A DNA stretch of 64,000 nt from Xylanibacter muris (GTDB lineage Bacteria; Bacteroidota; Bacteroidia; Bacteroidales; Bacteroidaceae): the NCBI RefSeq assembly GCF_013166605.1, contig NZ_JABKKF010000010.1, positions 1 through 64,000 of the forward strand, given 5' to 3'. The notes below the pieces were generated by a model. The model was not told the DNA's origin and made no database searches. It saw only the letters and a list, made by a program, of their open reading frames with translations. Positions 33,443 to 56,759 of this stretch are shown one piece after another. Numbering within the stretch: the first letter of the stretch is position 1; every line of letters begins with the position of its first letter. The translations under genes were made by a program, and so were the position numbers.

Positions 33443-33883
33443 TTATTTCTTCAGCAGATCTTCGAGAAATTTATTCAAATCGTCATCCAGTCCTTCCATA
33501 AGTTCTGGATCAATGATTATCGTATCATCATCAACGAGATACAGTTCCGCAACATTCTCTTTGTCTTCATTTTCGAGAATAAAGCTGAACGGCTTGATTA
33601 TAGCCATTCCATCAACCAGAGCTTTCTGCGCTTCTATACATTTCCTTACAGACTTTACAATAGAGACATAGAAATTGTCATCTTTGTTGTCTATCCATTG
33701 CTCTATAACAGAACGTGTGATTTCTTTGTCATCATCATCGAAAGCCACAAGCTCTCCTGTCTCCTGATTGGCTCTAAGATGGATGTCCGTAAGAATTGTC
33801 GGTTCTGCCTCAGACGGAAATTTGTCGGCGACTTTGCCGATAGTCCTTGTAATCTGTTGCAATGTCTGTTCCGTTGCTTTCAT
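33443..33883 (-). CDS. Hypothetical protein; its transcript is matched by CRISPR spacer 10
   Basis: A 146-residue acidic cytoplasmic protein starting MKATEQTLQQITRTIGKVAD, ending in a Leu/Asp/Glu-rich tail (GLDDDLNKFLEDLLKK). No signal peptide, membrane helix or known motif; I do not recognise the family, though similar small proteins occur in Bacteroidales. It has its own minus-strand promoter (33930-33961). Codons about 12-23 correspond to the protospacer at 33816-33850. The gene is open and shows no frameshift, so it is not obviously inactivated despite the matching spacer. Confidence 0.75.
   Translation of the reverse strand: MKATEQTLQQITRTIGKVADKFPSEAEPTILTDIHLRANQETGELVAFDDDDKEITRSVIEQWIDNKDDNFYVSIVKSVRKCIEAQKALVDGMAIIKPFSFILENEDKENVAELYLVDDDTIIIDPELMEGLDDDLNKFLEDLLKK
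33816..33850 (-). other. Protospacer of CRISPR spacer 10 (self-target)
   Basis: These 35 bases equal spacer 10 (52927-52961) except at position 3 (A at 33818, G in the spacer). The predicted crRNA has the plus-strand sequence and is therefore antisense to the mRNA of the minus-strand gene. The eight bases before the protospacer on the plus strand (33808-33815, CCTCAGAC) agree with the last eight of the repeat (ACTGAGAC) at six positions, including the final AGAC. The mRNA could therefore pair with much of the crRNA 5' handle. Confidence 0.95.
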
Positions 33884-33929: not shown

Positions 33930-33961
33930 CAAAAGTATAAAAAGATTCGTATACTTGCAAA
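33930..33961 (-). promoter_or_regulatory. Promoter of the self-targeted gene
   Basis: On the plus strand CAAAAGTA (33930-33937) and CAAA (33958-33961) are the complements of TACTTTTG and TTTG, 20 bases apart, a good Bacteroidetes promoter reading leftwards. The mRNA would begin near 33923, about 40 bases before the ATG, so the protospacer lies roughly 75-110 bases from the 5' end. Confidence 0.6.
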
Positions 33962-41392: not shown

Positions 41393-42010
41393 ATGAACAG
41401 TGAATATAAGTCTATAGGACTTTTTATCGATGGCGGTTATTTTGCAAAAATAAACCAGTCTTTAGAAGAATATTTGTCCAAGAGCATAGATATATCGGAG
41501 TTGATGGTTTTCATACGTGAGCAAGTCGGAACAATGAGCAACACTCGGATACGTGACTGCCAGATTACTGAAAGTCATTATTTCCGTGGCCGCTACCGTG
41601 TCAGGGAGGCAAACAGCAAGCATATTCTTTTCAGTGAGAGAAAGTTTGAAGACTCTCTTATAGAAAATGATGTGATATTCCATTACAAGCATTTGAGAGA
41701 GTTGCAGAAAGACGGAAACATCACTGTGGTGGAAAAGGGCATAGACGTATGGTTTGCATTGGAAGCTTATGAACTGTCTATCGTCCGTAAGTTTGACTAT
41801 GTGGTGCTGATAACCGGAGATGCCGACCACGAGATGTTATTACGTAAACTGAAAGCATTGAAGATACATACGGTATTGCTGACCTGGGATGTTTCTTCCG
41901 GAGACACCACTTCAACGGCAAGGCTCCTTAGGGAAGAGGCCGCCACTCATATAGAAATCGGAAAACTTGCTGAGGAAGACAAAGAACTGGTAAACAGACT
42001 TTGCCGTTGA
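41393..42010 (+). CDS. NYN (PIN-like) domain nuclease, first gene of the CRISPR operon
   Basis: A 205-residue NYN-domain protein of the LabA/DUF88 type. The four acidic residues expected for a metal-dependent PIN-fold RNase are visible: D13 in 'GLFIDGGYF', D118 in 'EKGIDVWFA', and D143 and D145 in 'LITGDADHEM'. The fold is complete, so it is probably an active RNase rather than a relic. It lies 34 bases upstream of the NrN-like gene and shares its promoter. I know of no established role for NYN proteins in SAM-AMP-type Cmr systems. It could be an extra effector, process crRNA or trim captured RNA, or be an unrelated passenger. Confidence 0.8.
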   Translation: MNSEYKSIGLFIDGGYFAKINQSLEEYLSKSIDISELMVFIREQVGTMSNTRIRDCQITESHYFRGRYRVREANSKHILFSERKFEDSLIENDVIFHYKHLRELQKDGNITVVEKGIDVWFALEAYELSIVRKFDYVVLITGDADHEMLLRKLKALKIHTVLLTWDVSSGDTTSTARLLREEAATHIEIGKLAEEDKELVNRLCR

Positions 42011-42044: not shown

Positions 42045-42803
42045 ATGAATGACAAGAAGATGTTTCTGTTAGGCGGAAATGATCTGGAAATGGAAACAAT
42101 CAGCCGTATTCTGAAAGAGAATGATATAAGTTTCCGAGACCGCTGTCTAAGTTGGAATGAAGCATATCTGAGCCGGTATAAGACTGAATTGGATGAGTTT
42201 GGAGGCCGGTCGGGATATATAATATATGGTGTGGAATTGCAGGAGGATATCGGGTGTCCGTGCAACTATGTGCGCATAGATCATCATAATGACTATGCAC
42301 ACAGACCGTCTTCCATTGAGCAGGTAATGGGAATTCTAAATATACCAATGGAAAGATATCATAAACTGGTTTCGGCAAATGATGCTCATTATATTCAGGG
42401 AATGATTGATGAAGGAGCTACACAGGCTGAGATTAAGCATATACGGTATGCCGACCGTAAGGCACAGGGTGTTACCGAGAATGATGAGATGTTGGCCGTT
42501 AAGGCAATTGAAGGAAAGTCACAATATGGAAGCCTGACTGTCGTGAATGCCCTGTCATCGGCTTTCTCACCGATATGCGACCGTTTATATCCATATAAAA
42601 ATCTTTTGATTTATACAAAGGATGAGTTGGTTTTCTATGGAGAGGGCACCGCAAAACTGAAAAACATGTTTCATGATTATATAAACGAGCGAAAGATGTA
42701 TTACGGTGGAGGTGAGAACGGATATTTGGGAATGGTGAAAGGTGTTTTTACGGCTGACGATATAAAACGAATTGTTGATGAAATTAAAATATTGTTTATA
42801 TGA
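42045..42803 (+). CDS. nrN: DHH-family phosphodiesterase, NrN-like (predicted SAM-AMP hydrolase)
   Basis: A 252-residue DHH/DHHA1-type protein. The metal-binding D-H-H is clear in 'VRIDHHNDYAH' (D79, H80, H81), a further acidic site lies in 'VSANDAHYIQGM', and the glycine-rich substrate loop of DHHA1 is 'YYGGGENGYLG' (about residues 219-229). In the Bacteroides fragilis type III-B system the neighbouring NrN phosphodiesterase hydrolyses the second messenger SAM-AMP and switches CorA off. The same pairing with CorA here supports that role by inference. Its 3' end overlaps corA by 4 bases (ATGA). Confidence 0.82.
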   Translation: MNDKKMFLLGGNDLEMETISRILKENDISFRDRCLSWNEAYLSRYKTELDEFGGRSGYIIYGVELQEDIGCPCNYVRIDHHNDYAHRPSSIEQVMGILNIPMERYHKLVSANDAHYIQGMIDEGATQAEIKHIRYADRKAQGVTENDEMLAVKAIEGKSQYGSLTVVNALSSAFSPICDRLYPYKNLLIYTKDELVFYGEGTAKLKNMFHDYINERKMYYGGGENGYLGMVKGVFTADDIKRIVDEIKILFI

Positions 42804-44272
42804 CATATAGCTATCATATCTTCTATTTTCCGTTTAAGTGGAAATTATATAATGGTAAAGAACTGCTGTTTTCAGAGCAGACAGACCTTGCAAAGATAAA
42901 TATCCGTAATGATTCTTTCTGGATACGGCAACAGGAACCAGTCAATTATGACGAGCTTAAGAGTTTGTATAATGAAAAAAACTATTATTACAAGTTTGTA
43001 CATAATATACTTTATGATGAAGCAGACGGAAGTTCCTCTGCCATGATATATCATTTTGAGCGTGACGAACCGAGGCAGTCCGACAAAGTGAGATATGTTA
43101 TAAAGGTGAAAGGACGGGCAAAGCCCTATTCGCTTGCTGTTGATGCAATGAATATAAACCTGTATGCAACGGGTGTGGGTTTTCTGTCTTTTTATCTTAG
43201 AAATGATGACAGCAGCCAAAAAGAACCGGATGACATATTGCGGATAAACCAGTATGGCAGACGCATTATGCCTCCGTTTTTTGACGATATAAAAAACAGG
43301 TATGAGCTGAGTGAATCTATCGGAATAGAAGGACTTTGGCCTGTCAAGGAGTATAAAGATGATTTCAGTTCATATTCCGTTGATGACTCATGGAAACCTG
43401 CTTCGTTTGTAAATGAACTTATAATGGAGCTTGCGGACAATATTGTGTTCGAACCTGTTATAGACGACCGTATGTTTGTGGCCTCGTGGTATAAGAATGA
43501 CAAGCTTGCCGATATGTTTACGGAAAATGATGAGGCATATATGAATCCGGCAGATGGTTTTTCATCGTTTTGGTATAAATATTTATTTATAGACGGGAGC
43601 TTTGAGACTTGTCAGAATGACAGGATGAAAAAAGAATTGCTTGATTCCCATACATATACGAGATGGCAGAAGTATTCATCCTTATATGGTGTTACAAGAT
43701 ATTCATTCATGCTTTTGACGAACAGCAGTGCTCCCGACCATCTTTTAGAATGTTTCCAGACAATATATGCCAGGATGGCGGAACTGGTGCTCGTACAGCG
43801 TGCGTCCCTGCTGTGTTTCTCTGACGAGGTTACAAGGGTAAGCAATTTGTCAAACCAGGAGGTCGGCGTTATTTCAGAACGTATCAGCTCACTTTACAAG
43901 GAATATATCCGTTTCATAAATATCGTATATTTCCGTGATGTCACGGCACAGGATCAGGGTATAGAACTGTATCATAAGCTGCATTCTTTCCTGAATATGG
44001 ATGAATGTATACACGACTTGGACAATGAGATAGAGGAGCTGCATCAGTATGTGTCACTGAAAGAAGACAGGAGCCGCGACCAGAAAGCCACACGGCTTAA
44101 TGATATTGCGACGTTCTTTCTTCCCGTTTCTGTCATTACAGGTTTTTGGGGTATGAACAGTATAGAGGCTGTGACGGGTGAGCAAGAGTCATTTAAGTGG
44201 CAATGCCTGTTGATTTTTGTCGGAGTGATAGCTTCGTTATTGGTAATTTATAATAAAAAGAAAAGATTATGA
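42800..44272 (+). CDS. corA: CorA-like membrane effector of type III-B CRISPR
   Basis: A 490-residue protein with a large soluble N-terminal domain, a helical stalk (about 330-435) and two C-terminal membrane helices. The first helix ends in 'FWGMNSI' with the CorA family GMN motif (G451-N453), and the second is 'LLIFVGVIASLLVIY'. Divergent CorA proteins linked to Cmr loci act as effectors; the B. fragilis one is gated by SAM-AMP and is toxic to the cell on activation. The N-terminal domain is much diverged from Mg2+-transport CorA, consistent with a nucleotide sensor. Coupled to nrN upstream and to the two-helix gene downstream by ATGA overlaps. Confidence 0.85.
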   Translation: MTYSYHIFYFPFKWKLYNGKELLFSEQTDLAKINIRNDSFWIRQQEPVNYDELKSLYNEKNYYYKFVHNILYDEADGSSSAMIYHFERDEPRQSDKVRYVIKVKGRAKPYSLAVDAMNINLYATGVGFLSFYLRNDDSSQKEPDDILRINQYGRRIMPPFFDDIKNRYELSESIGIEGLWPVKEYKDDFSSYSVDDSWKPASFVNELIMELADNIVFEPVIDDRMFVASWYKNDKLADMFTENDEAYMNPADGFSSFWYKYLFIDGSFETCQNDRMKKELLDSHTYTRWQKYSSLYGVTRYSFMLLTNSSAPDHLLECFQTIYARMAELVLVQRASLLCFSDEVTRVSNLSNQEVGVISERISSLYKEYIRFINIVYFRDVTAQDQGIELYHKLHSFLNMDECIHDLDNEIEELHQYVSLKEDRSRDQKATRLNDIATFFLPVSVITGFWGMNSIEAVTGEQESFKWQCLLIFVGVIASLLVIYNKKKRL

Positions 44273-44754
44273 ACTGGAAAATTGTAGAATGTTATTTAGC
44301 CATAATCATAGGCATTGTGGTTCTTGCATGTATTGACTATGACACCTTTGAAACCTTTACCATGAGGTGTATCGTGATAGCCGTATTGTTTTCGTTGCTT
44401 ATATTTATGCCATATATAAATCATAGATATCTGCATTTCAAGAGAAAGATGGAAACTATTGAAGAGGAAAATAAAAAGCAGGCCGAAAACTTCCAACGGG
44501 ATTTAAAGAGCATGCAGAGAACAGTTTCCGAAATGCGGCAGTGTATAGAGGAACTTGAGAAGAAACAGGAAAAGAAAGAAAATCCGTCTGCAGAGAATAC
44601 AGATATCGCAGACGATGAGCTGCAGCTTTTTCATGACTCGATGCTTGTGCAATGGGCAAGGGCGAATAAAATGCCTGTAAGTGACTTTGACAAGGTGAAG
44701 TCTGAATATAAAAGGCTGCGCAAACTTAATATTAACATTAACCGGAAAGCATGA
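44269..44754 (+). CDS. Two-helix membrane protein with coiled coil, coupled to corA
   Basis: A 161-residue protein with two N-terminal membrane helices (about 5-22 and 33-50) and a long cytoplasmic coiled coil (about 55-110, for example 'METIEEENKKQAENFQRDLK'). A small helical C-terminal segment follows ('LQLFHDSMLVQWARANKMP'). Its start codon overlaps the corA stop (ATGA), the tightest coupling in the operon, which suggests stoichiometric production with CorA. I recognise no family. It may be a CorA partner subunit, regulator or immunity-like factor, or a separate membrane effector. Confidence 0.75.
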   Translation: MNWKIVECYLAIIIGIVVLACIDYDTFETFTMRCIVIAVLFSLLIFMPYINHRYLHFKRKMETIEEENKKQAENFQRDLKSMQRTVSEMRQCIEELEKKQEKKENPSAENTDIADDELQLFHDSMLVQWARANKMPVSDFDKVKSEYKRLRKLNININRKA

Positions 44755-44761
44755 TAATCAG

Positions 44762-45706
44762 ATGGAAGGAATTTTTGAGTTGGTAAAAGGATTGTATTAT
44801 CATAGATTTGAGGTTTGTTTTAAGCCGGCAGATGATATCAGTGTGTCATCATGGAGCGGGGCGGTGCTGCGTAACAGGTTTTTATATTCTGCCGAGAATG
44901 TCTTTGTGGAACCAGGGATTTCATTGCGCCAGTGGCTCGACACTCTTCCTCTACCCGGGAGTCATAGTCTGTATAAGCATCTTGCAGGCGGTTTTCCAAA
45001 AGGATTCCTGTTTGATTGCAGCACATTGCCTTTTAAGGGTGGTTTCACGGTAAAGAAAAATAAGACCTATTCATTTGGCATGATACTTATCGGAAAGTGT
45101 GCGGAAAAAGCCCCTCTTTTTGCAGAGGCTCTTAAGATTATGTTTTCAGAGGGATGGGGAACACCGCCAGTTCCTTCTTGCTTGACAGGCATAACAGAGT
45201 GTATGGGAGGACGCACATTGCCCCTGTTTAATTTGGAAACGGACAACAGGAATGATGTGATACTGGCTTTGGAGTTTAAAACTCCGGTTAATCTTATAAA
45301 CCGTCCGTCACAAAGAAATCATGAAGGATATCAGGGTAAGCTGAATTGTTTTCCTTCCTTCTATCAGTTCGTGCGTTCGATAATGTATCGTCTTGTCACC
45401 CTGAACATTCTTTATACAGACAATGTGAAGGACATGAATCCAAAGGAAATAAAGGAGCGTATAGAGACTTTCATACGTACGGCATCCGATGCGATGCTTC
45501 TAAGTGCCGATATCCGCTATGAGAAACGTCACAGCACTCCGCGTATGGATGCCCGTAACGTGTATGTGATGTGCGGCTATTGCGGTACGATGGTATATGG
45601 AAATGTGGATTCACGCTTTGTTCCGCTTGTCAGTTTCGCCTCTGAACTCGGAGTCGGAAATGACATAAATTTCGGTTTGGGTACTTTTGGTGTTGAATAT
45701 AAATAA
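44762..45706 (+). CDS. cas6: CRISPR-associated endoribonuclease Cas6
   Basis: A 314-residue RAMP-superfamily protein ending in the Cas6-type glycine-rich region 'GVGNDINFGLGTFGVEYK' (about 295-314). Position between effector genes and cmr1 fits Cas6. It would cut the array transcript within each repeat; the repeat has a 6-bp stem and an 8-base 3' handle (ACTGAGAC), as expected of Cas6 products. The catalytic His cannot be assigned by eye; 'CGYCGTMVYG' near residue 277 is an unusual Cys-containing insert. It could alternatively be a Cas6-like relative acting only on this repeat. Confidence 0.75.
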   Translation: MEGIFELVKGLYYHRFEVCFKPADDISVSSWSGAVLRNRFLYSAENVFVEPGISLRQWLDTLPLPGSHSLYKHLAGGFPKGFLFDCSTLPFKGGFTVKKNKTYSFGMILIGKCAEKAPLFAEALKIMFSEGWGTPPVPSCLTGITECMGGRTLPLFNLETDNRNDVILALEFKTPVNLINRPSQRNHEGYQGKLNCFPSFYQFVRSIMYRLVTLNILYTDNVKDMNPKEIKERIETFIRTASDAMLLSADIRYEKRHSTPRMDARNVYVMCGYCGTMVYGNVDSRFVPLVSFASELGVGNDINFGLGTFGVEYK

Positions 45707-45715
45707 AAACTATAT

Positions 45716-47002
45716 ATGAAAAACTGTATAACAATAGAACTGGAGCAGCAGACTCCAATGTGGCATTTCCGGCCGGACGAGCAGGGATGTTGCTTGCGTG
45801 CCACGGAAGTAAAGCCTAAACTCGACAGGTTTATTGCCGAAATGCGTGAAAAGAACGGAAAGAAAGATGGTGTAGAGCCTCCGTTCAACTATAAAATGAG
45901 TTTTGAGGCAATAGGGGAGAAAAAGAAGATGCCGTGTCAGGAAGAGCGTAATGATAAGTATAGAAATTCCAAGAAAAAGAATCTGTATCCGTTGTTCTTC
46001 GGCAATGTGAGGGCAGAGCATCCCAAAAAACTGGTATTTTATCCAAATGGAATAAAGATGCGGGTGTTTTCATTGGATACAGCTTTGCTGGATGAAATAT
46101 CGGGATATCTAAACGTTTTTTTTGCACAGACAACATTCGGCACGCGTCAGGACAAGGGATTCGGGGCATTCTATCCAAAGTCAAAGACTTTCGATGAGTC
46201 AGGCGCATGCTATTGCTTTGAGACAAAGAATATGGCCAAAGACGAATATCCGGAAATGTTCAGGTATATTCATTACTTTCATAAAATGATACGGAGCGGC
46301 ATAAATGAAAACAACAATTATTACAAGTCATTTATGTTTTTCTATGCAAAAAGCCTTGGACAAACATGGGACAAGCCTGTTATACGCTATAACTTCCAGA
46401 TGTTCAATCCTCTTTACAAACATCTTTCCATGAAAGAAGATAATAAAAAATTAAGCAGATACAAACAAAGAGAAAGCATGAGGGAGGAGCGTGAGAAGCA
46501 GTTTGAAAAAGAGAAAAGTTATAGGGAATCAAAGTATTTGTTTAGGGATGCGCTTGGCCTTTCCGGGATACAGTCATGGGGAAGCTATCGGACATCTGTC
46601 TCTATTGATTGTGTCAAAGGTGGTGTAGGGCGTTTTAAGTCGCCAATATTGTATCGCCCTGTATATGTGGACGGTAAATATATGATATATCTATATCTTT
46701 CAAAGATAGACGGGATAAAAACATACGAAAAAAAAGAAACTGTAATGTTCAGAATTACAGCAGAATGTAATAATAAGAAAAAGACAATGGAGGATATGCA
46801 TGTTTATCCGGACTTCTTATTGGAGAGATATTTTGATTTCATAATAGAGAACTGTAAAGATGAAACAAAAAAAATAGGAGTGTTCGATAGAGAAAGGAGA
46901 AATGAGAATCTTATAAAAGATATTGTTTTAGAAATATTCGGTAAGGATAAGGAATCTGGAAATATAAACTTTAGAAAACTTGTAAAGTATGTCGGAAAAT
47001 AA
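45716..47002 (+). CDS. cmr1: Type III-B RAMP protein Cmr1
   Basis: A 428-residue RAMP protein with the Cmr1-type N-terminus 'ITIELEQQTPMWHF' and glycine-rich loop 'TTFGTRQDKGFGAFYPKSKT' (about residues 140-160). A highly charged region (about 235-270, 'RESMREEREKQFEKEKSYRE') separates it from the C-terminal half. Cmr1 caps the 3' end of the crRNA in Cmr complexes. The 3' end overlaps cas10 by 14 bases. The 3' half is more A-rich than neighbouring genes. Confidence 0.78.
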   Translation: MKNCITIELEQQTPMWHFRPDEQGCCLRATEVKPKLDRFIAEMREKNGKKDGVEPPFNYKMSFEAIGEKKKMPCQEERNDKYRNSKKKNLYPLFFGNVRAEHPKKLVFYPNGIKMRVFSLDTALLDEISGYLNVFFAQTTFGTRQDKGFGAFYPKSKTFDESGACYCFETKNMAKDEYPEMFRYIHYFHKMIRSGINENNNYYKSFMFFYAKSLGQTWDKPVIRYNFQMFNPLYKHLSMKEDNKKLSRYKQRESMREEREKQFEKEKSYRESKYLFRDALGLSGIQSWGSYRTSVSIDCVKGGVGRFKSPILYRPVYVDGKYMIYLYLSKIDGIKTYEKKETVMFRITAECNNKKKTMEDMHVYPDFLLERYFDFIIENCKDETKKIGVFDRERRNENLIKDIVLEIFGKDKESGNINFRKLVKYVGK

Positions 47003-48470
47003 AAAACAATATATAGGTATTACCTTAGGCCCTATAGGCAGGATAATGTCTTACACGAAAAGCATGAAATCATTTTGGGCTGCAAGCTATTTCATGTCTT
47101 ATATAGGAAAGAGTCTTGTAACGGATGTCTATAAGGCAGGAAGAAAGTTTCTCAAGCCTCTTCTTTCAGATAAGATGTTTGACATAAAGGACGGGGTGGG
47201 GCGTTTTCCTGACCAGTATGTTTTCATTGCGGAGAAGGATGACTATGAAGGTCTGCTCAGGAAACGTGATGAGGTGTTCCATACCCTGGCTATTGACATT
47301 GCGGCTACTCTAAACGGAAAGTACGGCAAGGCGGATATATGTCAATATCTTAAAGAGACCATAAAGATATATATATGTGAGATAAACGATATGAAACCGG
47401 ACGAGAATGCCGTTGACAAATGTCAGGGATATCTTGCCGGCATGGAATGCATGGATATATATCCTGTGACGGAGGAGCATAATTATCTTGCCGAATACTT
47501 TGAAAATATAAACAAGAGCTGCCTGCTTATAAAAGATGCGTTTGGAATTGGGAATGCAAAAGGTGAGCGGATTTTTGACACACTTATAGAGATGTCTGCA
47601 AACGAAGCTGTGGAGAAACAGCTCATAACAATAGAAGATCTACTGTTGGACAGCAGTAAGGTTTCAGAGCTTATGCCAAGATATAAATATGTGGCATATA
47701 TTTCGGCAGACGGAGACAATGTAGGCAAGGCCATAAGCAAGCTCGGAACAGAACTCAGTAGCAGACTGTTGTCGTTCAATATTAAAATAAGAGAGTCTGT
47801 GGAAAATGCCGGAGGCCGCCTGATCTATGCCGGTGGCGACGATATCCTGTTCATTGCTCCCGTTTCATCCGTATTCCAGTTGATTAAGGATACAGACGAG
47901 GCTTTCAATAATGAGATGGAACAGATAAAGGACATGCTGAAACAGAACGGCCTAGATGTTCCCACGCTTTCCTACGGTGTGTCTATAGCTTATTATAAGC
48001 ATCCGATGCGGGAGGCCATGGAGCTTTCAGAAGAACTTTTGGGCAAGGCCAAGGACAGCGGGCGCAACCGTATATGCTGGAACATGCGCAAGCATAGCGG
48101 CCAGTCTGTCGGTTCGGTCTTTGCAAAGGAGAATATGGACGTTTTCAACAAGGCATTGGAAATAATGTCTTTCTTCGGGTATACGGGAGACAACGGTTTG
48201 TTCCTCCATTCTTTCAGCCACTATCTGCTGCTGCATAAGGATATGATATCGGATGTGTTGGCAAATGAAAATAGTAAGCAGCAATTAGAGAATTACATAA
48301 AGGCTACATTTGATGATGATTCACACACAGACCATACGGAAATTATAAAGAAATTCCATGAGTTTATGATAATATCCTCATGCACTTATCCTGACGGCAA
48401 CAAGGGAAAATCAATAGAACTGCTTCATGCTCTGTTGCGCTATGTAGAATTGATAATCAGTAAGAATTAG
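46989..48470 (+). CDS. cas10: Cas10 (Cmr2) without HD nuclease domain
   Basis: A 493-residue Cas10 with palm-type cyclase motifs: 'ISADGDNVGKAI' (D241, D243) and 'IYAGGDDILFI' (GGDD at 282-285). The N-terminus begins directly with a palm-like segment ('YIGITLGPIGRIMSYTKSMK'); there is no room for, and no trace of, the HD DNase domain, and the protein is about half the usual 800-1000 residues. Active-site acidic residues are intact, so second-messenger synthesis is expected. With CorA and NrN next door, SAM-AMP is the likely product (established for B. fragilis Cmr; inferred here). Confidence 0.88.
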   Translation: MSENKKQYIGITLGPIGRIMSYTKSMKSFWAASYFMSYIGKSLVTDVYKAGRKFLKPLLSDKMFDIKDGVGRFPDQYVFIAEKDDYEGLLRKRDEVFHTLAIDIAATLNGKYGKADICQYLKETIKIYICEINDMKPDENAVDKCQGYLAGMECMDIYPVTEEHNYLAEYFENINKSCLLIKDAFGIGNAKGERIFDTLIEMSANEAVEKQLITIEDLLLDSSKVSELMPRYKYVAYISADGDNVGKAISKLGTELSSRLLSFNIKIRESVENAGGRLIYAGGDDILFIAPVSSVFQLIKDTDEAFNNEMEQIKDMLKQNGLDVPTLSYGVSIAYYKHPMREAMELSEELLGKAKDSGRNRICWNMRKHSGQSVGSVFAKENMDVFNKALEIMSFFGYTGDNGLFLHSFSHYLLLHKDMISDVLANENSKQQLENYIKATFDDDSHTDHTEIIKKFHEFMIISSCTYPDGNKGKSIELLHALLRYVELIISKN

Positions 48471-48479
48471 ACTATAGCT

Positions 48480-49574
48480 ATGAAATATCTAATAGAATTA
48501 AAGCCCTTGGGCAGCTATTTCTTCGGAGGTGAGGTTACCTTTGGAGAAGCGGGAACAGCACAGAATTATTTGGTAAAGTCGAATGTCATGCCGCAGGCCT
48601 CTGCCGTATTGGGGCTGATGCGCTATTGCATATTGCGATGGAAAGGTCTGCTTTCTTATAGTCAAGATGATGTAAAGCTGGTAACGCGGCTTATTGGTCC
48701 GAAGGGATTCGATTTCGGTGCGGATGCTGATTACGGGATAATAAAAAGTGTATCACCGGTGTTTATTACAGACGGAAATGATTTCTATACGCCAATGCCT
48801 CTTGACAAAATGATACGAGTTGAGCGCAATGAAGCAGACGGGAAAGTGTCCTATACGCCAAAGATTCTTGACAACGGAATGAAAGTGGAATTTAACGGCA
48901 AAAACCGGTGTTCGTTTTCAGATTCTGCCTCAAATGACAGTCTGCCTGTAATCAACGGATATGACAGCAAGAAGTATGATACATACAAGTATTGGTATGG
49001 TACAAACGGAATCAAATCTACAGAAGATCTGTTCACCTTCTCTAACCAGATAGGTATAACAAAGAACGGGCGGAAAAAAAACGAGAAGGATGCTTTTTTC
49101 AAACAGACCACCGTTCTTTTAAATCCCAGGATGAGCTTTGCCTTCACTGTTGAGCTGAAGGACAACAATTTCCTAAGTGACAAGGAGATAATGGACATCA
49201 TTTCAAAACGTCACATTGTGCCTTTCGGCGGCAACCGCTCCATGTTCCTGATGACAGTGAAGAACAGTGTGGACTGGAATGAAAAGTTCTCGGCCCTGCA
49301 TGAAGACAACCGTCTGCTGCTTTTGGGAGATGCTGTTCTTGAGAACGATTTAAGAAACAAATGCCGCTTTATATGGGGAGAAAGCAAACCGTTCCGCTAT
49401 ATGATAAATGTGGCAAAGGACAGGCACTCATTGGGGGAACCCAAGAAAAAGGAAAAACTGCTTCATCTTCAGTCGAGAGGAAGTGTCATCTATGCGGATC
49501 CTGATACGCTCAACAGAATAAGAAACAATGCCAAAACTTCATTGACAGACATTGGACTGAACATTTTTATTTAA
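48480..49574 (+). CDS. cmr3: Type III-B RAMP protein Cmr3
   Basis: A 364-residue Cmr3/Csm4-like RAMP that binds the crRNA 5' handle. The N-terminus 'LKPLGSYFFGGEVTFG' and 'NVMPQASAVLGLMRY' are characteristic. 'ILDNGMKVEF' and 'RHIVPFGGNRSMFLM' (about 240-255) precede a shorter C-terminal region ('LLHLQSRGSVIYAD'). 9 bases after cas10. Confidence 0.85.
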   Translation: MKYLIELKPLGSYFFGGEVTFGEAGTAQNYLVKSNVMPQASAVLGLMRYCILRWKGLLSYSQDDVKLVTRLIGPKGFDFGADADYGIIKSVSPVFITDGNDFYTPMPLDKMIRVERNEADGKVSYTPKILDNGMKVEFNGKNRCSFSDSASNDSLPVINGYDSKKYDTYKYWYGTNGIKSTEDLFTFSNQIGITKNGRKKNEKDAFFKQTTVLLNPRMSFAFTVELKDNNFLSDKEIMDIISKRHIVPFGGNRSMFLMTVKNSVDWNEKFSALHEDNRLLLLGDAVLENDLRNKCRFIWGESKPFRYMINVAKDRHSLGEPKKKEKLLHLQSRGSVIYADPDTLNRIRNNAKTSLTDIGLNIFI

Positions 49575-49598: not shown

Positions 49599-50414
49599 AT
49601 GAAAGCATATATTTATCAATTGGATGCCGTAACCAATATGCAGGTTGGCAATGGAGAGGTTAATTTCGGAGTTGTGGACAATCTTATACAGCGTGATGCG
49701 GCAACGAATTTTCCCGTTATAAACGCCTCAGGCATAAAAGGTGCCCTTCGTGAATATTTCAAGGACAAGGATAAGGGCTATGTCCGCGAACTGTTCGGTA
49801 GCGAGCCTACTGATACCCAAAATCATGAAAGCGGAAAACTGCGCTTTTTTGATGCCAATCTTATAGCCATGCCGGTTAGATGCAACAATGTGCCGTATCT
49901 TATGGGAACATGCCCGATGCTAATAAACGACTACATATCAAAATGCGGACTCTTTGAATTTTCTAACGGCAATTGTGATATAAAGAAGCTGACAGACCAT
50001 GTCTGCCGTGGTCCGGTAGTTTTGGATAAAGAATACGGCAATAGTGTCATCGAGGATTGCAGTAGGCCGGCCATGTTCACAGGCAACATTGACGAAGAAA
50101 CAATGTCCTTTCTAAGAGAACTTATAGACGGGCCTGTGGTCTTGTTCAGTGATGATGAGTTTAAACGCCTGTGTGACAACGACCATCTGCCGGTGATTGC
50201 CCGTAACAATCTGTCGGATAATAACAGGAATCTATGGTATGAGCAGGTTCTGCCGCGTTTCAGTCGTCTTCGCTTCTTTGTATTGGCAGAAGAATCTAAA
50301 TGTATAAAGAATTTTAAGGAAGATACGGATGGTAAGCTGATACAGGTCGGAGCCAACGCTACCGTCGGTTATGGATATTGTAAGTTGTCATTAATATCGG
50401 AATGTGAAGTATGA
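49599..50414 (+). CDS. cmr4: Type III-B backbone RAMP protein Cmr4
   Basis: A 271-residue Cmr4, the repeated backbone subunit. 'QVGNGEVNFGVVDNLIQRD' carries the conserved Asp (D27) that cuts target RNA in Cmr complexes, so RNA cleavage capacity seems intact. 'FPVINASGIKGALREYF' is the RAMP GSSxKG-type loop, and 'LIQVGANATVGYGYCKL' the C-terminal glycine-rich loop. Overlaps the next gene by 4 bases. Confidence 0.88.
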   Translation: MKAYIYQLDAVTNMQVGNGEVNFGVVDNLIQRDAATNFPVINASGIKGALREYFKDKDKGYVRELFGSEPTDTQNHESGKLRFFDANLIAMPVRCNNVPYLMGTCPMLINDYISKCGLFEFSNGNCDIKKLTDHVCRGPVVLDKEYGNSVIEDCSRPAMFTGNIDEETMSFLRELIDGPVVLFSDDEFKRLCDNDHLPVIARNNLSDNNRNLWYEQVLPRFSRLRFFVLAEESKCIKNFKEDTDGKLIQVGANATVGYGYCKLSLISECEV

Positions 50415-51670
50415 GAATAGACATGGAATGGGTAAAGGCTGCCCATAATGCCTTGAAAACGTCTGGGTTTGGAATCGTGGATGACGAAGGAAATTATCCG
50501 AAAGCATTTAAAGGATACATATCTTCTTTGGGAGCTTCTATAATACAGACAGGACTGTTTCCTGCATTGTCTATCTATGAAAATGACAACGAGGCTTCAG
50601 GAACGTCTGCAGAAAACAACCGTGCATATCTGATATATGCAATAGTATGTTTGCTACAGGAACTGGAAATAATAAAAGATAAGGAAAAGAAATTCATGCT
50701 TACGCATTATCTCATAGATGACAGGAAAACGGACTGGAACCGATATATAGGCAAGGCACTTGTTGCATTGAAACTGGCAATACGCGTGTACACGCCAGAT
50801 GACGGCAGGCGTGATAAAAGAGGTTTATTTGACAAATTAGAAAATGAAAAGGATATGGTTGACTGTGTTATGGGGATTTATTCCAATAAGCCTAATTTGG
50901 GCTGGATATATTATAAAGATCTGTATCGTGATTATGGCTATTGTAAATCTGATGACCTGATTGAAAGGAAAATAAGAATGATATGTGAGGCAAAGTTCAA
51001 GCATTATGAAGGCTTTGCCGAAAAGATGTCGGATGTTTTTAAAAATGAGGATGGTTATTGCAGTTTTACACTTGTCACTACATATCCTGGATTGGTAATA
51101 GGGACAGGGCTTTCTCATGGAATAAAAAGCAAGGATGATATAAAGACAGGAATGATGTTTGATTATTCAACAGGACTGCCTTATATTCCCGGCTCTTCTG
51201 TAAAGGGCGTGTTGAGAAGTATATTTCCTGATTCTGACAATGACAGTACACGTATTTCTTTTGTCAAGGAGATATTGAGTGAAAACGGAATTAAAGTTTA
51301 TGATTCCGATATACGGAAATTGTGCGGTAATATACGGAAATTGTGCGGTAATTTGTTCGAGACAGACAATGGCGTTGTATTTCTCGATACTTTTATATCA
51401 GCTGTCAACAACAATAATGGATATTTTATCGGTACGGATTACATTACCCCTCATAAGAATCCTTTGAAAAACCCTGTACCTATTAAAATATTAAAAGTTT
51501 GTCCTGGAGTGACATTCAAGTTTTCGTTTATCATTCCAGATGTTGTTTCGTTGTCCGAAGGCATGTCGCTGACTCGTTGTGAAGTGATGGAAATGTTCAA
51601 GAGCATACTGTTGTATGTCGGTGCAGGAGCGAAGACAAATGTAGGGTACGGGCATTTTCGTGATGATTAA
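50411..51670 (+). CDS. Fused Cmr5-Cmr6 protein
   Basis: A 419-residue protein. Residues about 1-140 are helical and resemble Cmr5 ('FKGYISSLGASIIQTGLFPA'). Residues about 200-419 are a Cmr6 RAMP domain with 'SHGIKSKDDIKTGMMFDYST', 'GLPYIPGSSVKGVLRSIF' (about 255-272) and 'VGAGAKTNVGYGHF' at the C-terminus. No separate cmr5 or cmr6 gene exists in the operon, so the fusion supplies both subunits in a 1:1 ratio. A perfect 21-base tandem duplication (51311-51352) repeats IRKLCGN at residues 301-314. Confidence 0.8.
   Translation: MRIDMEWVKAAHNALKTSGFGIVDDEGNYPKAFKGYISSLGASIIQTGLFPALSIYENDNEASGTSAENNRAYLIYAIVCLLQELEIIKDKEKKFMLTHYLIDDRKTDWNRYIGKALVALKLAIRVYTPDDGRRDKRGLFDKLENEKDMVDCVMGIYSNKPNLGWIYYKDLYRDYGYCKSDDLIERKIRMICEAKFKHYEGFAEKMSDVFKNEDGYCSFTLVTTYPGLVIGTGLSHGIKSKDDIKTGMMFDYSTGLPYIPGSSVKGVLRSIFPDSDNDSTRISFVKEILSENGIKVYDSDIRKLCGNIRKLCGNLFETDNGVVFLDTFISAVNNNNGYFIGTDYITPHKNPLKNPVPIKILKVCPGVTFKFSFIIPDVVSLSEGMSLTRCEVMEMFKSILLYVGAGAKTNVGYGHFRDD
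51311..51352 (+). repeat. 21-bp perfect tandem duplication inside the cmr5-6 gene
   Basis: The unit ATACGGAAATTGTGCGGTAA plus T occurs twice head to tail (51311-51331 and 51332-51352), adding seven residues (IRKLCGN) in frame. There is no difference between the units, so the event looks recent. Confidence 0.95.
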
Positions 51671-51722: not shown

Positions 51723-52279
51723 CCATGTGTTCTTTGACTTATTTAAAATACTTTCTTTGATTATGACAGTTCTAATAAGATATTTTATTGCCAATATGTT
51801 TCAATGGAAAATTACTATATCCCACAAAACATTTGCGAAAATTATAATTTTATGTAATAGACAGATAATCAGATATATAACATTTTCTTGTCTGACACGT
51901 GCCTTAGTGTAAAGGTTCGCAAACCTTTTGAGAACTGTTCTATGGCGATACATTTGCGAAAATATTAAGTAACGGAAATGCTATTTCTTTGATTTTCAGG
52001 GTATTATATATGGATAAAGACACCGCATATTCGCAAATCGGAAATTCAGGGCTTTACATTAAAACATTTGCGTGGTGTTATATATGTCTAATATGTTGAT
52101 TATGAGTGGGGTAAATGTTTTTTAACTTTAAATTGTTTGGATATGTAAGTTTTTATATTTACTTTTGCGAAAGTTTTAAAACAAGGGGAATCAAAGCATT
52201 GATTTTAAAAGGGAATCTGGTGAATACAACAAAGAAAATATGACAATATGTTAATATGTAACTTATTGATTTTCTTGTT
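51723..52279 (+). promoter_or_regulatory. CRISPR leader region with repeated TTTGCGAA motif
   Basis: A gene-free, AT-rich stretch of 557 bases between the cmr operon and the first repeat. It holds six copies of a TTTGCG(AA)/TTCGCAAA core: plus-oriented at about 51832, 51953, 52067 and 52164, and inverted at 51916-51923 and 52030-52037. The array promoter (52136-52167) lies near its right end. Repeated sites in a leader could bind a protein that regulates array transcription or guides integration. Confidence 0.65.
52136..52167 (+). promoter_or_regulatory. Promoter of the CRISPR array
   Basis: TTTG (52136-52139) and TACTTTTG (52160-52167), 20 bases apart, match the Bacteroidetes consensus. Transcription would begin near 52174, about 105 bases before the first repeat. 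This fixes array transcription left to right and agrees with the decayed repeat at the right-hand end. Confidence 0.65.
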
Positions 52280-53820
52280 GATTCCTATGTCTACTGCGTT
52301 AGCGGTACTGAGACCCATGATTTCGTGACCGAACTGCGAGCTGATTTTAAGATTCCTATGTCTACTGCGTTAGCGGTACTGAGACTTTTTTTCATTTTAA
52401 CTAGTTGTTTGATTACAGATTCCTATGTCTACTGCGTTAGCGGTACTGAGACAATTTTTTTTCATTTTTTTTTATTTTTTTTGTTGATTCCTATGTCTAC
52501 TGCGTTAGCGGTACTGAGACGTTTTTTTAATTAAATATAATAGTATTTTTTGATTCCTATGTCTACTGCGTTAGCGGTACTGAGACGGCTATAATTGCAA
52601 AAAACTTCTTCATATATGTAGATTCCTATGTCTACTGCGTTAGCGGTACTGAGACGAATTTCTTAAATTCCACTTTTTTCATAAATACAGATTCCTATGT
52701 CTACTGCGTTAGCGGTACTGAGACGTCTTCTTCATAATAAGTTTGTATTTTGTGTTTGATTCCTATGTCTACTGCGTTAGCGGTACTGAGACATAAAATT
52801 TTTTTTTTTTGATTTAATAAAAGATTCCTATGTCTACTGCGTTAGCGGTACTGAGACATTTTTCTTTTTCATTTTCTATTTTTTTTTTTAAGATTCCTAT
52901 GTCTACTGCGTTAGCGGTACTGAGACGGGAATTTGTCGGCGACTTTGCCGATAGTCCTTGTGATTCCTATGTCTACTGCGTTAGCGGTACTGAGACTTTT
53001 TCTGTCATATAGGCATTTTTTTATTTTGATGATTCCTATGTCTACTGCGTTAGCGGTACTGAGACACGAACCTGATTTGGTTCTTGATGCTCCGCATGAT
53101 TCCTATGTCTACTGCGTTAGCGGTACTGAGACCAACGACGAGAGCAACAACAAAAATAATATAAATGATTCCTATGTCTACTGCGTTAGCGGTACTGAGA
53201 CCTTTTCTCATAATTGTTTTTGTTAAATTGTTTTAGATTCCTATGTCTACTGCGTTAGCGGTACTGAGACAGCAAGAATCAGAATGATAGTATACATGAT
53301 TAAGATTCCTATGTCTACTGCGTTAGCGGTACTGAGACTTTTTTTCTAATTGAGAGTTAAACATATTTTGTGATTCCTATGTCTACTGCGTTAGCGGTAC
53401 TGAGACAAACACACACAAATAAATAACAATAATTAGTTAGATTCCTATGTCTACTGCGTTAGCGGTACTGAGACGTAAAACGATCATTGTCAAAGCAATG
53501 ATTAAGATTCCTATGTCTACTGCGTTAGCGGTACTGAGACATTTATTCATAATTCTTAGTAATTTTAATTCGTTGATTCCTATGTCTACTGCGTTAGCGG
53601 TACTGAGACTAAAAATAATAGCTTTTTTCATAATTTAGTATTTAAGATTCCTATGTCTACTGCGTTAGCGGTACTGAGACGTTAAGGTTTGATGTAGTCT
53701 AGTGTTTCAGCGAAGGATTCCTATGTCTACTGCGTTAGCGGTACTGAGACTGTTCATAAAATAATGTTTAGATGATTTGATAAAGGATTCCTATGTCCAC
53801 TTACATTAACCGCCATGGAT
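52280..53820 (+). CRISPR. CRISPR array, 22 intact repeats plus one decayed terminal repeat, 22 spacers
   Basis: The repeat is 35 bases (GATTCCTATGTCTACTGCGT then TAGCGGTACTGAGAC), identical in all 22 intact copies. A final copy at 53786 keeps only the first 12 bases, marking the leader-distal end. Positions 13-18 (TACTGC) and 23-28 (GCGGTA) form a 6-bp stem with a GTTA loop, leaving ACTGAGAC as the predicted crRNA 5' handle. Spacers are 30-36 bases, strongly AT-rich, and all different. Sixteen contain CAT, so the opposite strand carries ATG, often after an AT-rich stretch and followed by Lys codons. Spacer 10 (52927-52961) matches 33816-33850. Frames running through the repeats are artefacts. 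Confidence 0.99.
52927..52961 (+). other. Spacer 10: self-matching spacer
   Basis: A 35-base spacer, GGGAATTTGTCGGCGACTTT continuing GCCGATAGTCCTTGT, matches the plus strand at 33816-33850 except at base 3. It is far less AT-rich than its neighbours. As crRNA it would pair with codons about 12-23 of the mRNA of the 33443-33883 gene. Confidence 0.95.
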
Positions 53821-53840
53821 GTAAATGATAAACAGGAAAT

Positions 53841-53941
53841 GTTAAAAGTGTATTTGGGCTAAAAACAGAGTGTATTTAGGCTACATACACTCTGTTTTTA
53901 GGCTACATACACAGTGTATGTAGGCCAAATACACTTTTAAC
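53841..53941. repeat. Nested inverted repeat distal to the array
   Basis: An outer stem (GTTAAAAGTGTATTTGGGCT at 53841-53860 with its near-complement at 53922-53941) encloses two hairpins. One is AAAAACAGAGTGTAT/ATACACTCTGTTTTT (53861-53875/53885-53899); the other is CTACATACAC/GTGTATGTAG with a one-base loop (53903-53923). The whole can fold as a three-way junction. TAGGCTACATACAC also occurs as a direct repeat inside it. The rest of 53821-54140 shows no gene. Confidence 0.8.
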
Positions 53942-54141
53942 AGTTGGTATCCGGTCGTTCTTTCCTGTCTGATATTGACTAAAATGTAGGGTATCCGATT
54001 CCATCAATGAATGGCGTTTGGAATGCACGAAACCACAGTGTCAATATTTCTGTTTCTTTTATAGAAAAGACTGAATACTTTCAGTCCTGCTGATTTGCTG
54101 ATAAAAATCAAAATAATCACTGCTTTTAAAATAAAAAACAT

Positions 54142-54180: not shown

Positions 54181-56469
54181 ATGAATAATACGTATATGGA
54201 GAGTTTATTTGACAGATTATGTAAGACCGGAACATTGCTGCAAGCATGGAAAACGGTAAGACAAAAAGGAGCGTCCGGTGGTATTGACGGTATTTCCATT
54301 AAAGATATTGACGATGAAATAGGCGACCATATAAAGATATTGCAAACAGAGTTGAAAGCCTGCGAATGGAAACCGGAACCCTATCTGCGCATAAGCATTC
54401 CAAAGAAAGACAGCGAACGGCGAAAACTTGGATTATTATGTGTAAGAGACAAGATTGTACAGCAGGCCATAAGGATTGTGATAGAACCCAGATTTGAGCG
54501 TTTGTTTGTAAAAAACAGTTATGGATACAGACCTGATAAGGGTCACACAAAGGCAATAAAGTTTGTCAGGCATTGCTGTCAAAACAAAAAATATCCTTTT
54601 GTTCTCCGTCTTGACATAGACAATTATTTTGATACGATAAATCATGATATCCTGTTCACGAGACTGCGTTCTGTCATACCAGACGAAGAGATTCTCAGAC
54701 TGGTGAAGCTTTGTGTACAGATGGGAAATGTAAATAAAGGATGTCAATGGAAAGAGAATTCCCAAGGAATAGCACAGGGTAGTGTGCTTTCACCGTTGCT
54801 TTCAAATTTTTATCTTCATTCCTTTGATCAGTTTATACTGTCGAAAACACCGATGTATGTAAGATATGCAGATGATTTTATTATATGCTGTGAAAGCAAG
54901 GAGAAGGCAGAACTGTTGCTTAAGGGAGGCACGGAGTTTTTGGAAAAAAGACTTAAGCTCAGTTTGAATCCTCCTGTCGTTTCGGAGATAAAGGACGGCT
55001 TTGAGTTTTTAGGTGTATGCATTGACAATAGGAAAGTATTTATTTCAAAGGAAAAAGAAGAAAAGCTTATTTGTAGAATCAGAGAATTGGAATGGGAGAG
55101 CAATGCCTTCAATGATGCAGGACTGAAATATCTTCAGGGTATAAAGAACTATTACGCTCCATTGTTGCCGCAGTCCTGTCTTGTCATGCTTGATGATGTG
55201 CTTATATCACATCTGAAACAAATAATTACCGTTAAATGGAAAGATATTCCCAATAAGACGGCGCTTCAGAATGCATTGAAAGATATAGATTTTTATTCGG
55301 AGCAAAACATACTTCACAAAAGCAGCGTCAGAGGTGATCTAACAGCCCATTATCTTGCAGAACGCTCTGCAAATATAAATGTGGAGAATGAAAGAAAGAA
55401 TAAAAAGGTTATCAGACAGAAGAAGAAAGAATACAGGAAGAAAGAGAATGAGGCTACGGAGATCATAATAAACACCTATGGAACATTTATAGGTGTGGAT
55501 GCAGGCGGAATATCGTTGAAAGTATATGGAAAGAAACAGACAGAAATACCTCCGGGCAATAACCTCCGTCATATAACCGTATTAGGTAATGGGATTAGCA
55601 TATCAAGTAATGCCATAGGCTATTGCATGCAGAATAAAATACCGATAGACTTTTTCACGAATACAGGACAACATTATGCCAGCATTCTTTCCAATTCTTT
55701 TCTTTCCAATTCTCTTTGGCAGAAACAAGCCATGATGCCGCAATGTGTCCGGGCGTTACTTGCAAAAAGAATCATATACGGGAAATTGAAGAATCAAAAG
55801 AACCTGATAAAGTATTTCCATAAGTATCATAAGACAACATCGGAAGAACTTTGTGCAAAGTATGACGTTGTTTTGCCAAAGCTTGAGAGTATAATAAATA
55901 ATGTAAGTCAATATAAGCATCAGGAATACAACGATAAAGACTATCATGTTGCCATCATAGGGTGGGAGGCTGCCGGTGCCCTGCTTTACTGGGATTATAT
56001 AAAAACTCTTGTGTCGGATGATGATGTCGGATTTTTATATAGGGAAAGGAGAGGGGCCACCGATATTGTGAACAGTCTGCTTAATTACGGTTATTCCATT
56101 CTCTATTCGCGTATATGGCAGACGGTGTTACAAAGAAAATTGAATCCGATGGACAGTGTGATACATCTGCCACAGTCAGGAAAACCCACTTTTGTTTATG
56201 ACATCATAGAATTGTTCAGGTCGCAGGTTGTGGACAGGGTGGTGGTTTCACTTGTGCAAAAGAAAGAACCTCTGACAATACAGAATGGCAGACTTTCTGA
56301 TAAGACAAAAGAGTTGCTTGTACGGAACATTGTCGAGAGACTTAACAGGTATGAGGTGTATCGTGGCAGGGAATGCCGGCTTTGTGATATTATGAAACAG
56401 CAGGTGGGAGAGATTGCCGGGTTTATTTCTTCCGGAACAAACTATAAACCATACATAGCCAAGTGGTAG
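54181..56469 (+). CDS. cas1: Reverse transcriptase-Cas1 fusion
   Basis: A 762-residue fusion. Residues about 1-330 are a group II intron-like reverse transcriptase: 'GGIDGISIKDID', 'YGYRPDKGHTKAI', 'FVLRLDIDNYFDTINHDIL' with the first catalytic Asp, 'GIAQGSVLSPLLSNFYLH', and YADD at 229-232. A basic linker (about 385-430) leads to Cas1 (about 435-762), with metal ligands E596 in 'WEAAGALLYW', H662 in 'SVIHLPQ' and D674/E677 in 'DIIELF'. Both active sites look intact. RT-Cas1 with Cas2 acquires spacers from RNA in several type III systems. No Cas6 domain is fused; Cas6 is separate here. Confidence 0.97.
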   Translation: MNNTYMESLFDRLCKTGTLLQAWKTVRQKGASGGIDGISIKDIDDEIGDHIKILQTELKACEWKPEPYLRISIPKKDSERRKLGLLCVRDKIVQQAIRIVIEPRFERLFVKNSYGYRPDKGHTKAIKFVRHCCQNKKYPFVLRLDIDNYFDTINHDILFTRLRSVIPDEEILRLVKLCVQMGNVNKGCQWKENSQGIAQGSVLSPLLSNFYLHSFDQFILSKTPMYVRYADDFIICCESKEKAELLLKGGTEFLEKRLKLSLNPPVVSEIKDGFEFLGVCIDNRKVFISKEKEEKLICRIRELEWESNAFNDAGLKYLQGIKNYYAPLLPQSCLVMLDDVLISHLKQIITVKWKDIPNKTALQNALKDIDFYSEQNILHKSSVRGDLTAHYLAERSANINVENERKNKKVIRQKKKEYRKKENEATEIIINTYGTFIGVDAGGISLKVYGKKQTEIPPGNNLRHITVLGNGISISSNAIGYCMQNKIPIDFFTNTGQHYASILSNSFLSNSLWQKQAMMPQCVRALLAKRIIYGKLKNQKNLIKYFHKYHKTTSEELCAKYDVVLPKLESIINNVSQYKHQEYNDKDYHVAIIGWEAAGALLYWDYIKTLVSDDDVGFLYRERRGATDIVNSLLNYGYSILYSRIWQTVLQRKLNPMDSVIHLPQSGKPTFVYDIIELFRSQVVDRVVVSLVQKKEPLTIQNGRLSDKTKELLVRNIVERLNRYEVYRGRECRLCDIMKQQVGEIAGFISSGTNYKPYIAKW

Positions 56470-56471
56470 TT

Positions 56472-56759
56472 ATGCATACAAAGAAAATATTCTGTGTCGT
56501 TGCATACGACATATCCGACAGCCGACGGCGTGCGAAAGTGATAAAAGTACTGAAAGGATTTGGTACAAGAGTTAATCTCAGTGTCCTTGAATGTATGTTT
56601 AACCCATCACAAATAAAAAAGGTACAGGATAAAATATCACAACTGATATATGACAAAGAGGACAGGGTCATATTCTATCCTTTATGCCTTGACTGTTTTT
56701 CGAAGATAGCATACTGTCCGGAACGTAATGTGCCACACAAATCCGTTTTGGTTGTATGA
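56472..56759 (+). CDS. cas2: Cas2
   Basis: A 95-residue Cas2 with the ferredoxin-like first strand 'KIFCVVAYDISDSRRR' (conserved Asp after YD). The start is taken at the ATG at 56472, which gives the typical N-terminus; an in-frame GTG at 56463 would overlap the RT-Cas1 stop. Cas2 bridges two Cas1 dimers in the integration complex. Directly follows RT-cas1 and is presumably co-transcribed. Confidence 0.95.
   Translation: MHTKKIFCVVAYDISDSRRRAKVIKVLKGFGTRVNLSVLECMFNPSQIKKVQDKISQLIYDKEDRVIFYPLCLDCFSKIAYCPERNVPHKSVLVV

What the first reader, a model, noticed from the sequence alone, without database searches (positions are those of the whole stretch)
52927..52961. Spacer 10 targets a host gene in the same window, antisense to its mRNA and with crRNA-handle complementarity
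Seen: spacer 10 and 33816-33850 agree at 34 of 35 bases. The matched gene (33443-33883) lies on the minus strand, so the crRNA made from the left-hand promoter is antisense to its mRNA. The eight bases flanking the protospacer (CCTCAGAC) match the repeat's last eight (ACTGAGAC) at six positions, including the four next to the spacer. Established: type III complexes suppress Cas10 activation when the target's 3' flank pairs with the crRNA 5' handle. Inference: this self-target escapes autoimmunity by handle pairing. Cmr4 (D27 intact) might still cut the transcript, so the array could silence a host gene without raising the alarm.
Basis: partly seen in the sequence, partly recalled or inferred. 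Interest (0 to 1): 0.96.

Follow-up and report, generated by a model that had tools for sequence, protein, structure and literature searches.

The report
CRISPR spacer matching its host's gene
A gut-type (Prevotella-family) bacterium's RNA-recording CRISPR array carries one guide that matches and is antisense to one of its own core genes; it looks like accidental capture of the cell's own message, tolerated perhaps because the target's flank pairs with the guide's handle, and whether it does anything to the gene is untested.

Summary
Confirmed: spacer 10 (52927-52961) matches 33816-33850 at 34/35. It is the only one of 22 spacers with a real hit in the host genome. The target (33443-33883, minus strand) is a conserved Prevotellaceae gene beside rseC-rnfBC, not a prophage. 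Array and target each have a Bacteroidetes-type promoter, so the crRNA is antisense to the mRNA. The one mismatch is synonymous (TTC/TTT) and a G-U wobble in RNA. The flank pairs with the handle at 6/8 positions, including -1 to -4 (local chance 0.08-0.4%). The locus is an intact type III-B system (CorA/NrN, Cas10 GGDD without HD, Cmr4 D27) with RT-Cas1. Its array is built from message starts: 12 of 22 spacers have an ATG-opened frame only on the antisense strand, none only on the sense strand.

Best reading: RT-Cas1 captured the 5' part of a host (or sister-strain) mRNA, and handle pairing plausibly keeps it harmless. Handle pairing is not a general rule: a sister system (G870) carries two antisense self-spacers at message starts without it, though both are its newest spacers. 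Silencing of the host gene is possible but unsupported. In passing: spacer 12 shares 23 exact bases with a single-stranded-RNA phage replicase.

The parts
52927..52961 (+). Spacer 10, the self-matching spacer; crRNA guide GGGAATTTGTCGGCGACTTTGCCGATAGTCCTTGT
   Evidence: the only spacer with a real hit in the own genome
33816..33850 (-). Target site in host mRNA, 33-67 nt downstream of the A of the start codon; 34/35 identical, 35/35 pairable in RNA with one G-U
33808..33815 (-). Anti-tag (3' flank of the target in the mRNA, 5'-GUCUGAGG): pairs with handle positions -1 to -4, -6, -7
33443..33883 (-). Target gene: conserved 146-aa Prevotellaceae protein of unknown function, divergent from rseC-rnfB-rnfC
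   Evidence: no family hit above cut-off, no fold match
33930..33961 (-). Bacteroidetes-type promoter TTTG-N20-TACTTTTG of the target gene
   Evidence: 11 such matches in 64 kb, both strands
52136..52167 (+). Leader promoter TTTG-N20-TACTTTTG reading into the array
52280..53801 (+). CRISPR array: 22 perfect repeats, 22 spacers, decayed terminal repeat at 53786
52919..52926 (+). Repeat 3' end ACTGAGAC = predicted 8-nt crRNA handle of spacer 10
   Evidence: 8-nt handle of the homologous B. fragilis system, PMC10600005
54181..56469 (+). RT-Cas1 fusion (RVT_1 + Cas1), YADD intact
56463..56759 (+). Cas2
46989..48470 (+). Cas10/Cmr2, GGDD at residue 282, no HD nuclease motif
49599..50414 (+). Cmr4, the target-RNA slicer; D27 present
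45716..47002 (+). Cmr1
48480..49574 (+). Cmr3
50411..51670 (+). Cmr5-Cmr6 fusion
44762..45706 (+). Cas6 (crRNA processing)
42800..44272 (+). CorA-type membrane effector (SAM-AMP branch)
42045..42803 (+). DHH family protein of the NrN (SAM-AMP phosphodiesterase) kind
41393..42010 (+). NYN ribonuclease-like protein

Best explanation
Spacer 10 is a self-derived spacer of a probably working type III-B/RT-Cas1 system. The RT-Cas1-Cas2 complex captured a fragment from the 5' part of a host (or same-species) mRNA, copied it, and inserted it in the antisense orientation. It was then kept because the crRNA:mRNA duplex extends into the handle by four contiguous pairs (plus two more), which should keep Cas10 from making the SAM-AMP alarm. 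Cas10 also lacks an HD nuclease, so the self-target costs at most some slicing of that mRNA by Cmr4. Shown here: the match, the orientation, the promoter sequences, the intact motifs, the flank, and the array's bias to message starts. Inferred: that RNA (not DNA) was the source, that the handle pairing is what makes it tolerable, and that Cmr4 slices the message at all.
For: Single self-hit at 34/35. No spacer-10 hit in 398 congeneric genomes besides its own, and at most 27/35 in the 80 closest homologues, so the source was this species. RT-Cas1/Cas2 adjacent and intact. Array-wide: 12 of 22 spacers carry an ATG-opened frame only on the antisense strand and 0 only on the sense strand (P=0.00024); 55 vs 21 in 162 relatives' spacers (P=6e-5). 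Window TTCAT count 9 vs 3.5 in shuffles (P=0.001). Sister system G870 carries two self-spacers antisense to host mRNA 5' ends. Literature: Fusicatenibacter RT-Cas1 prefers A/T-rich ends of highly expressed genes (PMC6990116); RT-Cas1 enzymes start cDNA with G opposite CC (PMC10415136; PMC11014452), and spacer 10 starts GGG with the mismatch at position 3. Antisense host spacers are selected against when Cmr is active (PMC5576922), so tolerance needs an explanation. Anti-tag pairing blocks Cas10 while Cas7 slicing goes on (PMC11127173; PMC7214462). Flank match local chance 0.08-0.4%.
Against: One locus, one genome. The synonymous mismatch fits sister-strain polymorphism as well as an RT start error, so the source may have been DNA or another cell. 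G870's two antisense self-spacers lack handle pairing (2/8 and 3/8 scattered), so pairing is not required for presence, at least for new spacers. The anti-tag match is partial (mismatch at -5 and -8), and no tag test of this Cmr family was found; P. furiosus Cmr uses an rPAM instead (as cited in PMC5576922). Spacer 10 is 51% G+C, unlike most of the array. In relatives' arrays the TTCAT enrichment over shuffles is weak (P=0.06).
Confidence: 0.58

Rival explanations
1. Plain accident without handle protection: a self-derived spacer survives because the target mRNA is scarce, the system is rarely expressed, or target slicing is so fast that the alarm stays below threshold. The flank match is chance.
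For: G870 carries two antisense self-spacers without handle pairing beside an intact-looking effector. B. fragilis Cmr slices its target within 2 min, which should limit Cas10 activation (PMC10600005). One site was examined after the fact.
Against: The flank match has 0.08-0.4% local chance and lies at the positions the tag rule predicts. Spacer 10 sits mid-array, so it has persisted, whereas G870's are leader-proximal.
Confidence: 0.3
2. The array regulates a host gene: the spacer-10 crRNA guides Cmr4 to slice the target mRNA without raising the alarm, and this lowering of expression is selected.
For: Antisense orientation, intact D27 and handle pairing. Slicing does not need a non-pairing flank (PMC11127173).
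Against: No conservation test was possible. Relatives' target genes do not share the protospacer or its flank. Self-hits recur in sister systems without a common target. A selected role is not needed to explain the data.
Confidence: 0.08
3. The spacer really targets a phage or plasmid that carries a copy of this gene.
For: Most spacers of such arrays have no known source.
Against: No match in IMG/VR for 35- and 21-base patterns, in phages or in plasmids. The gene is a conserved chromosomal gene with fixed neighbours in 69 of 80 relatives.
Confidence: 0.04

Closest known systems
Bacteroides fragilis type III-B Cmr with CorA/NrN, SAM-AMP signalling (PMC10600005)
   Same: Cas6, Cmr1-6, Cas10 with cyclase motif, CorA and DHH/NrN; 8-nt handle; Cmr4 D27
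   Different: Cmr5 and Cmr6 are fused here; an extra small coiled-coil ORF (44269-44754); SAM-AMP not tested
Marinomonas mediterranea MMB-1 type III-B with RT-Cas1 (PMC5576922, PMC11014452)
   Same: RT-Cas1 plus Cas2 feeding a type III-B array; host-derived spacers acquired; antisense ones are the dangerous kind
   Different: MMB-1 RT-Cas1 also carries Cas6; there antisense host spacers were depleted in wild type, here one is retained
Fusicatenibacter saccharivorans RT-Cas1 (Record-seq; as cited in PMC6990116)
   Same: Preference for A/T-rich ends of transcripts, as in this array
   Different: That was overexpression in E. coli; this is a natural array with an effector present
Tag:anti-tag self-tolerance of type III complexes (PMC7214462, PMC11127173)
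   Same: Pairing of the target 3' flank with the crRNA handle predicted to block Cas10 but not slicing
   Different: Normally protects the array's own transcript; here it would protect a distant host gene, with partial (6/8) pairing

Membership tests
Type III-B CRISPR-Cas, CorA/SAM-AMP branch | Cas10 with GGDD and Cmr RAMP proteins | tested here: met
Type III-B CRISPR-Cas, CorA/SAM-AMP branch | CorA effector with NrN (DHH) or SAM-AMP lyase | tested here: met
   PADLOC CorA 4.6e-123, DHH_CorA 1.2e-76
Type III-B CRISPR-Cas, CorA/SAM-AMP branch | Makes SAM-AMP on target binding | not testable with these tools
   needs biochemistry
RT-Cas1 adaptation module | RT domain fused to Cas1, catalytic YxDD, Cas2 adjacent | tested here: met
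RT-Cas1 adaptation module | Spacers taken from RNA | tested here: inconclusive
   strand and start-codon bias fits; no RT-deleted control possible
Self-targeting type III spacer | Match to own chromosome outside any mobile element | tested here: met
Self-targeting type III spacer | crRNA complementary to a transcript | tested here: met
   orientation and promoter sequences; transcript level not measured
Handle-protected (non-cognate) target | 3' flank pairs with the crRNA handle next to the guide | tested here: met
   pairs at -1 to -4, -6, -7; partial, not 8/8
Handle-protected (non-cognate) target | Flank pairing shared by antisense self-targets of sister systems | tested here: not met
   G870: 2/8 and 3/8 scattered
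CRISPR array acting as gene regulator | Change of target expression that depends on the array | not testable with these tools
   needs RNA-seq of deletion strains

The most novel reading that the evidence does not exclude
A natural type III array that has kept a host-mRNA-derived spacer as a working antisense silencer: Cmr4 slices the host message while partial handle pairing mutes the SAM-AMP alarm.
Probability: 0.08. Interest if true: 0.9.

Novelty: new member of a known kind. Interest (0 to 1): 0.5.

Why it matters
RT-linked type III systems can write host messages into their own memory, and how cells survive that is an open question. This locus gives one natural, persistent antisense self-spacer with a partly handle-pairing flank, and a sister genome gives two recent ones without it. 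Together they make the tolerance rule directly testable in one effector family.

Tried and rejected
Phage, plasmid and IMG/VR source of spacer 10: none. Other spacers against the own genome: only weak low-complexity hits. Weak congeneric hits of T-rich spacers: treated as composition matches, E 1e-5 to 1e-3, and not used. Handle pairing as a rule for all self-hits: tested on four sister self-hits and rejected. Function of the target gene: no family above cut-off; good AlphaFold model (pLDDT 89) but no PDB fold match. Phage sources for relatives' spacers: none found (which covered only the L119 and L120 arrays). Searching IMG/VR for the degenerate peptide of spacer 12: no hit.

Full report
CHECK OF THE OBSERVATION. 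The array runs from 52280 with 22 perfect 35-nt repeats and a decayed last repeat at 53786. Spacer 10 is 52927-52961. It agrees with 33816-33850 at 34 of 35 bases; the best placement of any other spacer in the window is at chance level. In the whole 3.35-Mb genome spacer 10 is the only spacer with a real second site (E 3.6e-9). The chance expectation for such a hit is about 1e-11.

ORIENTATION. A Bacteroidetes promoter of the form TTTG-N20-TAnnTTTG lies at 52136 and reads into the array; none reads inward from the right end. The promoter consensus is from own knowledge. The decayed repeat is on the right. So the crRNA has the handle ACUGAGAC followed by the spacer as written. The target ORF is on the minus strand and has its own such promoter at 33961-33930. 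The crRNA is therefore complementary to its mRNA, 33-67 nt downstream of the A of the start codon. The one mismatch is third-codon, TTC in the spacer versus TTT in the gene; in RNA it is a G-U pair, so the guide can pair over all 35 positions.

TARGET. The gene is not mobile. The 80 closest homologues, all in Bacteroidales and nearly all labelled Prevotellaceae, share 58-73% identity, and in 69 of 80 the gene lies divergent from rseC (rnfB and rnfC found in 70 and 69), as here. Its function is unknown: no family above cut-off, and no fold match to a confident model. The protospacer itself is species-specific (at most 27/35 in other species; no other hit in 398 congeneric genomes). So the spacer was taken from this species.

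FLANK. The eight bases next to the protospacer match the handle at -1 to -4, -6 and -7. In the window's own sequence this combination occurs at 0.08% of positions, four adjacent matches at 0.38%, and matches at -2 to -4 at 1.7%. By the tag rule (PMC11127173; PMC7214462) such a flank should hold Cas10 inactive while slicing continues. This rule has not been tested for this Cmr family in the sources read, and P. furiosus Cmr is reported to use an rPAM (cited in PMC5576922).

MACHINERY. The locus encodes NYN, DHH/NrN, CorA, Cas6, Cmr1, Cas10 (GGDD, no HD), Cmr3, Cmr4 (D27), a Cmr5-Cmr6 fusion, RT-Cas1 (YADD) and Cas2. It is the B. fragilis-type CorA system (PMC10600005) joined to an RT-Cas1 module. 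Nothing in the sequence suggests it is broken.

WHERE THE SPACERS COME FROM. Many spacers read, on the antisense strand, as a short leader, ATG, then Lys-rich codons (MKK, MKKFFAIIA, MKKVEFKKF). Twelve of 22 have an ATG-opened frame only on that strand and none only on the other (P=0.00024). In 162 spacers from RT-Cas1 relatives the count is 55 to 21 (P=6e-5). Against dinucleotide shuffles the TTCAT excess is clear in the window (9 vs 3.5, P=0.001) and weak in the relatives (P=0.06). So the array is largely antisense to message starts, as expected for RNA capture from transcript ends (Record-seq enzyme, as cited in PMC6990116). Spacer 10 itself lies near a message start, though it is unusually G+C-rich. 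It begins GGG, with the mismatch at position 3. RT-Cas1 enzymes start cDNA with G opposite CC (PMC10415136; PMC11014452) and leave noncoded bases at spacer ends (PMC11014452). A start error is thus possible; a strain polymorphism is at least equally possible.

COMPARATIVE TEST. RT-Cas1 loci were found in 6 further family members and 6 order members. Spacers from ten of these genomes with GAC-ended repeats were extracted and searched against the genomes. Four clear self-hits emerged. Two are sense and harmless by rule (G196, at the start of an ATPase-like gene; G097, inside a TolC-like gene). Two are antisense, both in G870: one over the start codon of an RND membrane-fusion lipoprotein-like gene, matching 35 of 37 with its first two bases GG unmatched, and one upstream of an MNKKFSTLVAGAALLLG gene. 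G870's Cas10, Cmr4, CorA and NrN look intact. Handle matches in the order G196, G097, and G870 first and second spacer are 0, 3, 2 and 3 of 8; only G097 has contiguous ones. Handle pairing is therefore not a condition for a self-spacer to be present. But G870's two are its newest spacers, whereas spacer 10 has nine newer ones in front of it. The contrast fits selection acting over time; with three antisense cases it is only suggestive.

WEIGHING. Self origin is close to certain. Capture from RNA is likely but not proven. Handle pairing as the reason for tolerance is about an even bet; antisense host spacers are known to be selected against in an RT-Cas1 type III-B system (PMC5576922), so some reason is needed. 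A regulatory role has no positive evidence. Self-targeting spacers in RT-linked type III systems have been reported before (PMC6990116), so this is a new member of a known kind with an unusually clean flank.

Noticed in passing
53066-53097 (spacer 12) and L137:2953-2975: Spacer 12 shares 23 exact contiguous bases with a 3979-nt IMG/VR contig that encodes an ssRNA-phage (levivirus-like) replicase, in the antisense orientation, within the conserved QEPNQxLA motif. The two leader-side bases differ, as noncoded bases would; the other 7 bases mostly differ. Possibly an RNA-phage-derived spacer.
   Followed up: partly
52280-53785: Most spacers are T-rich and many read antisense as mRNA starts (ATG-Lys-Lys); strand bias 12:0.
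   Followed up: yes
L132 (array), L139, L141: In G870 the two leader-proximal spacers match host mRNA 5' ends in antisense, without handle pairing.
   Followed up: yes
arrays of L119-L136: First spacer base after the repeat is a purine in 114 of 162 relatives' spacers against 44% in the interior (P=1e-11); may reflect noncoded addition or integrase preference.
   Followed up: partly
L143, L144, L145, L146: A G210 spacer partly matches (30-31 of 37) sites antisense to the region at or just upstream of integrase-like ORFs that occur in several copies and genomes: a likely mobile-element target.
   Followed up: partly
44269-44754: Small membrane/coiled-coil ORF between CorA and Cas6 with no family above cut-off; G870 has a similar-sized ORF after CorA.
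   Followed up: no
53837-53945: Large nested inverted repeats of a GTGTATTTAGGCTA-like unit between the array end and RT-Cas1.
   Followed up: no
50411-51670: Cmr5 and Cmr6 are fused in one ORF.
   Followed up: no
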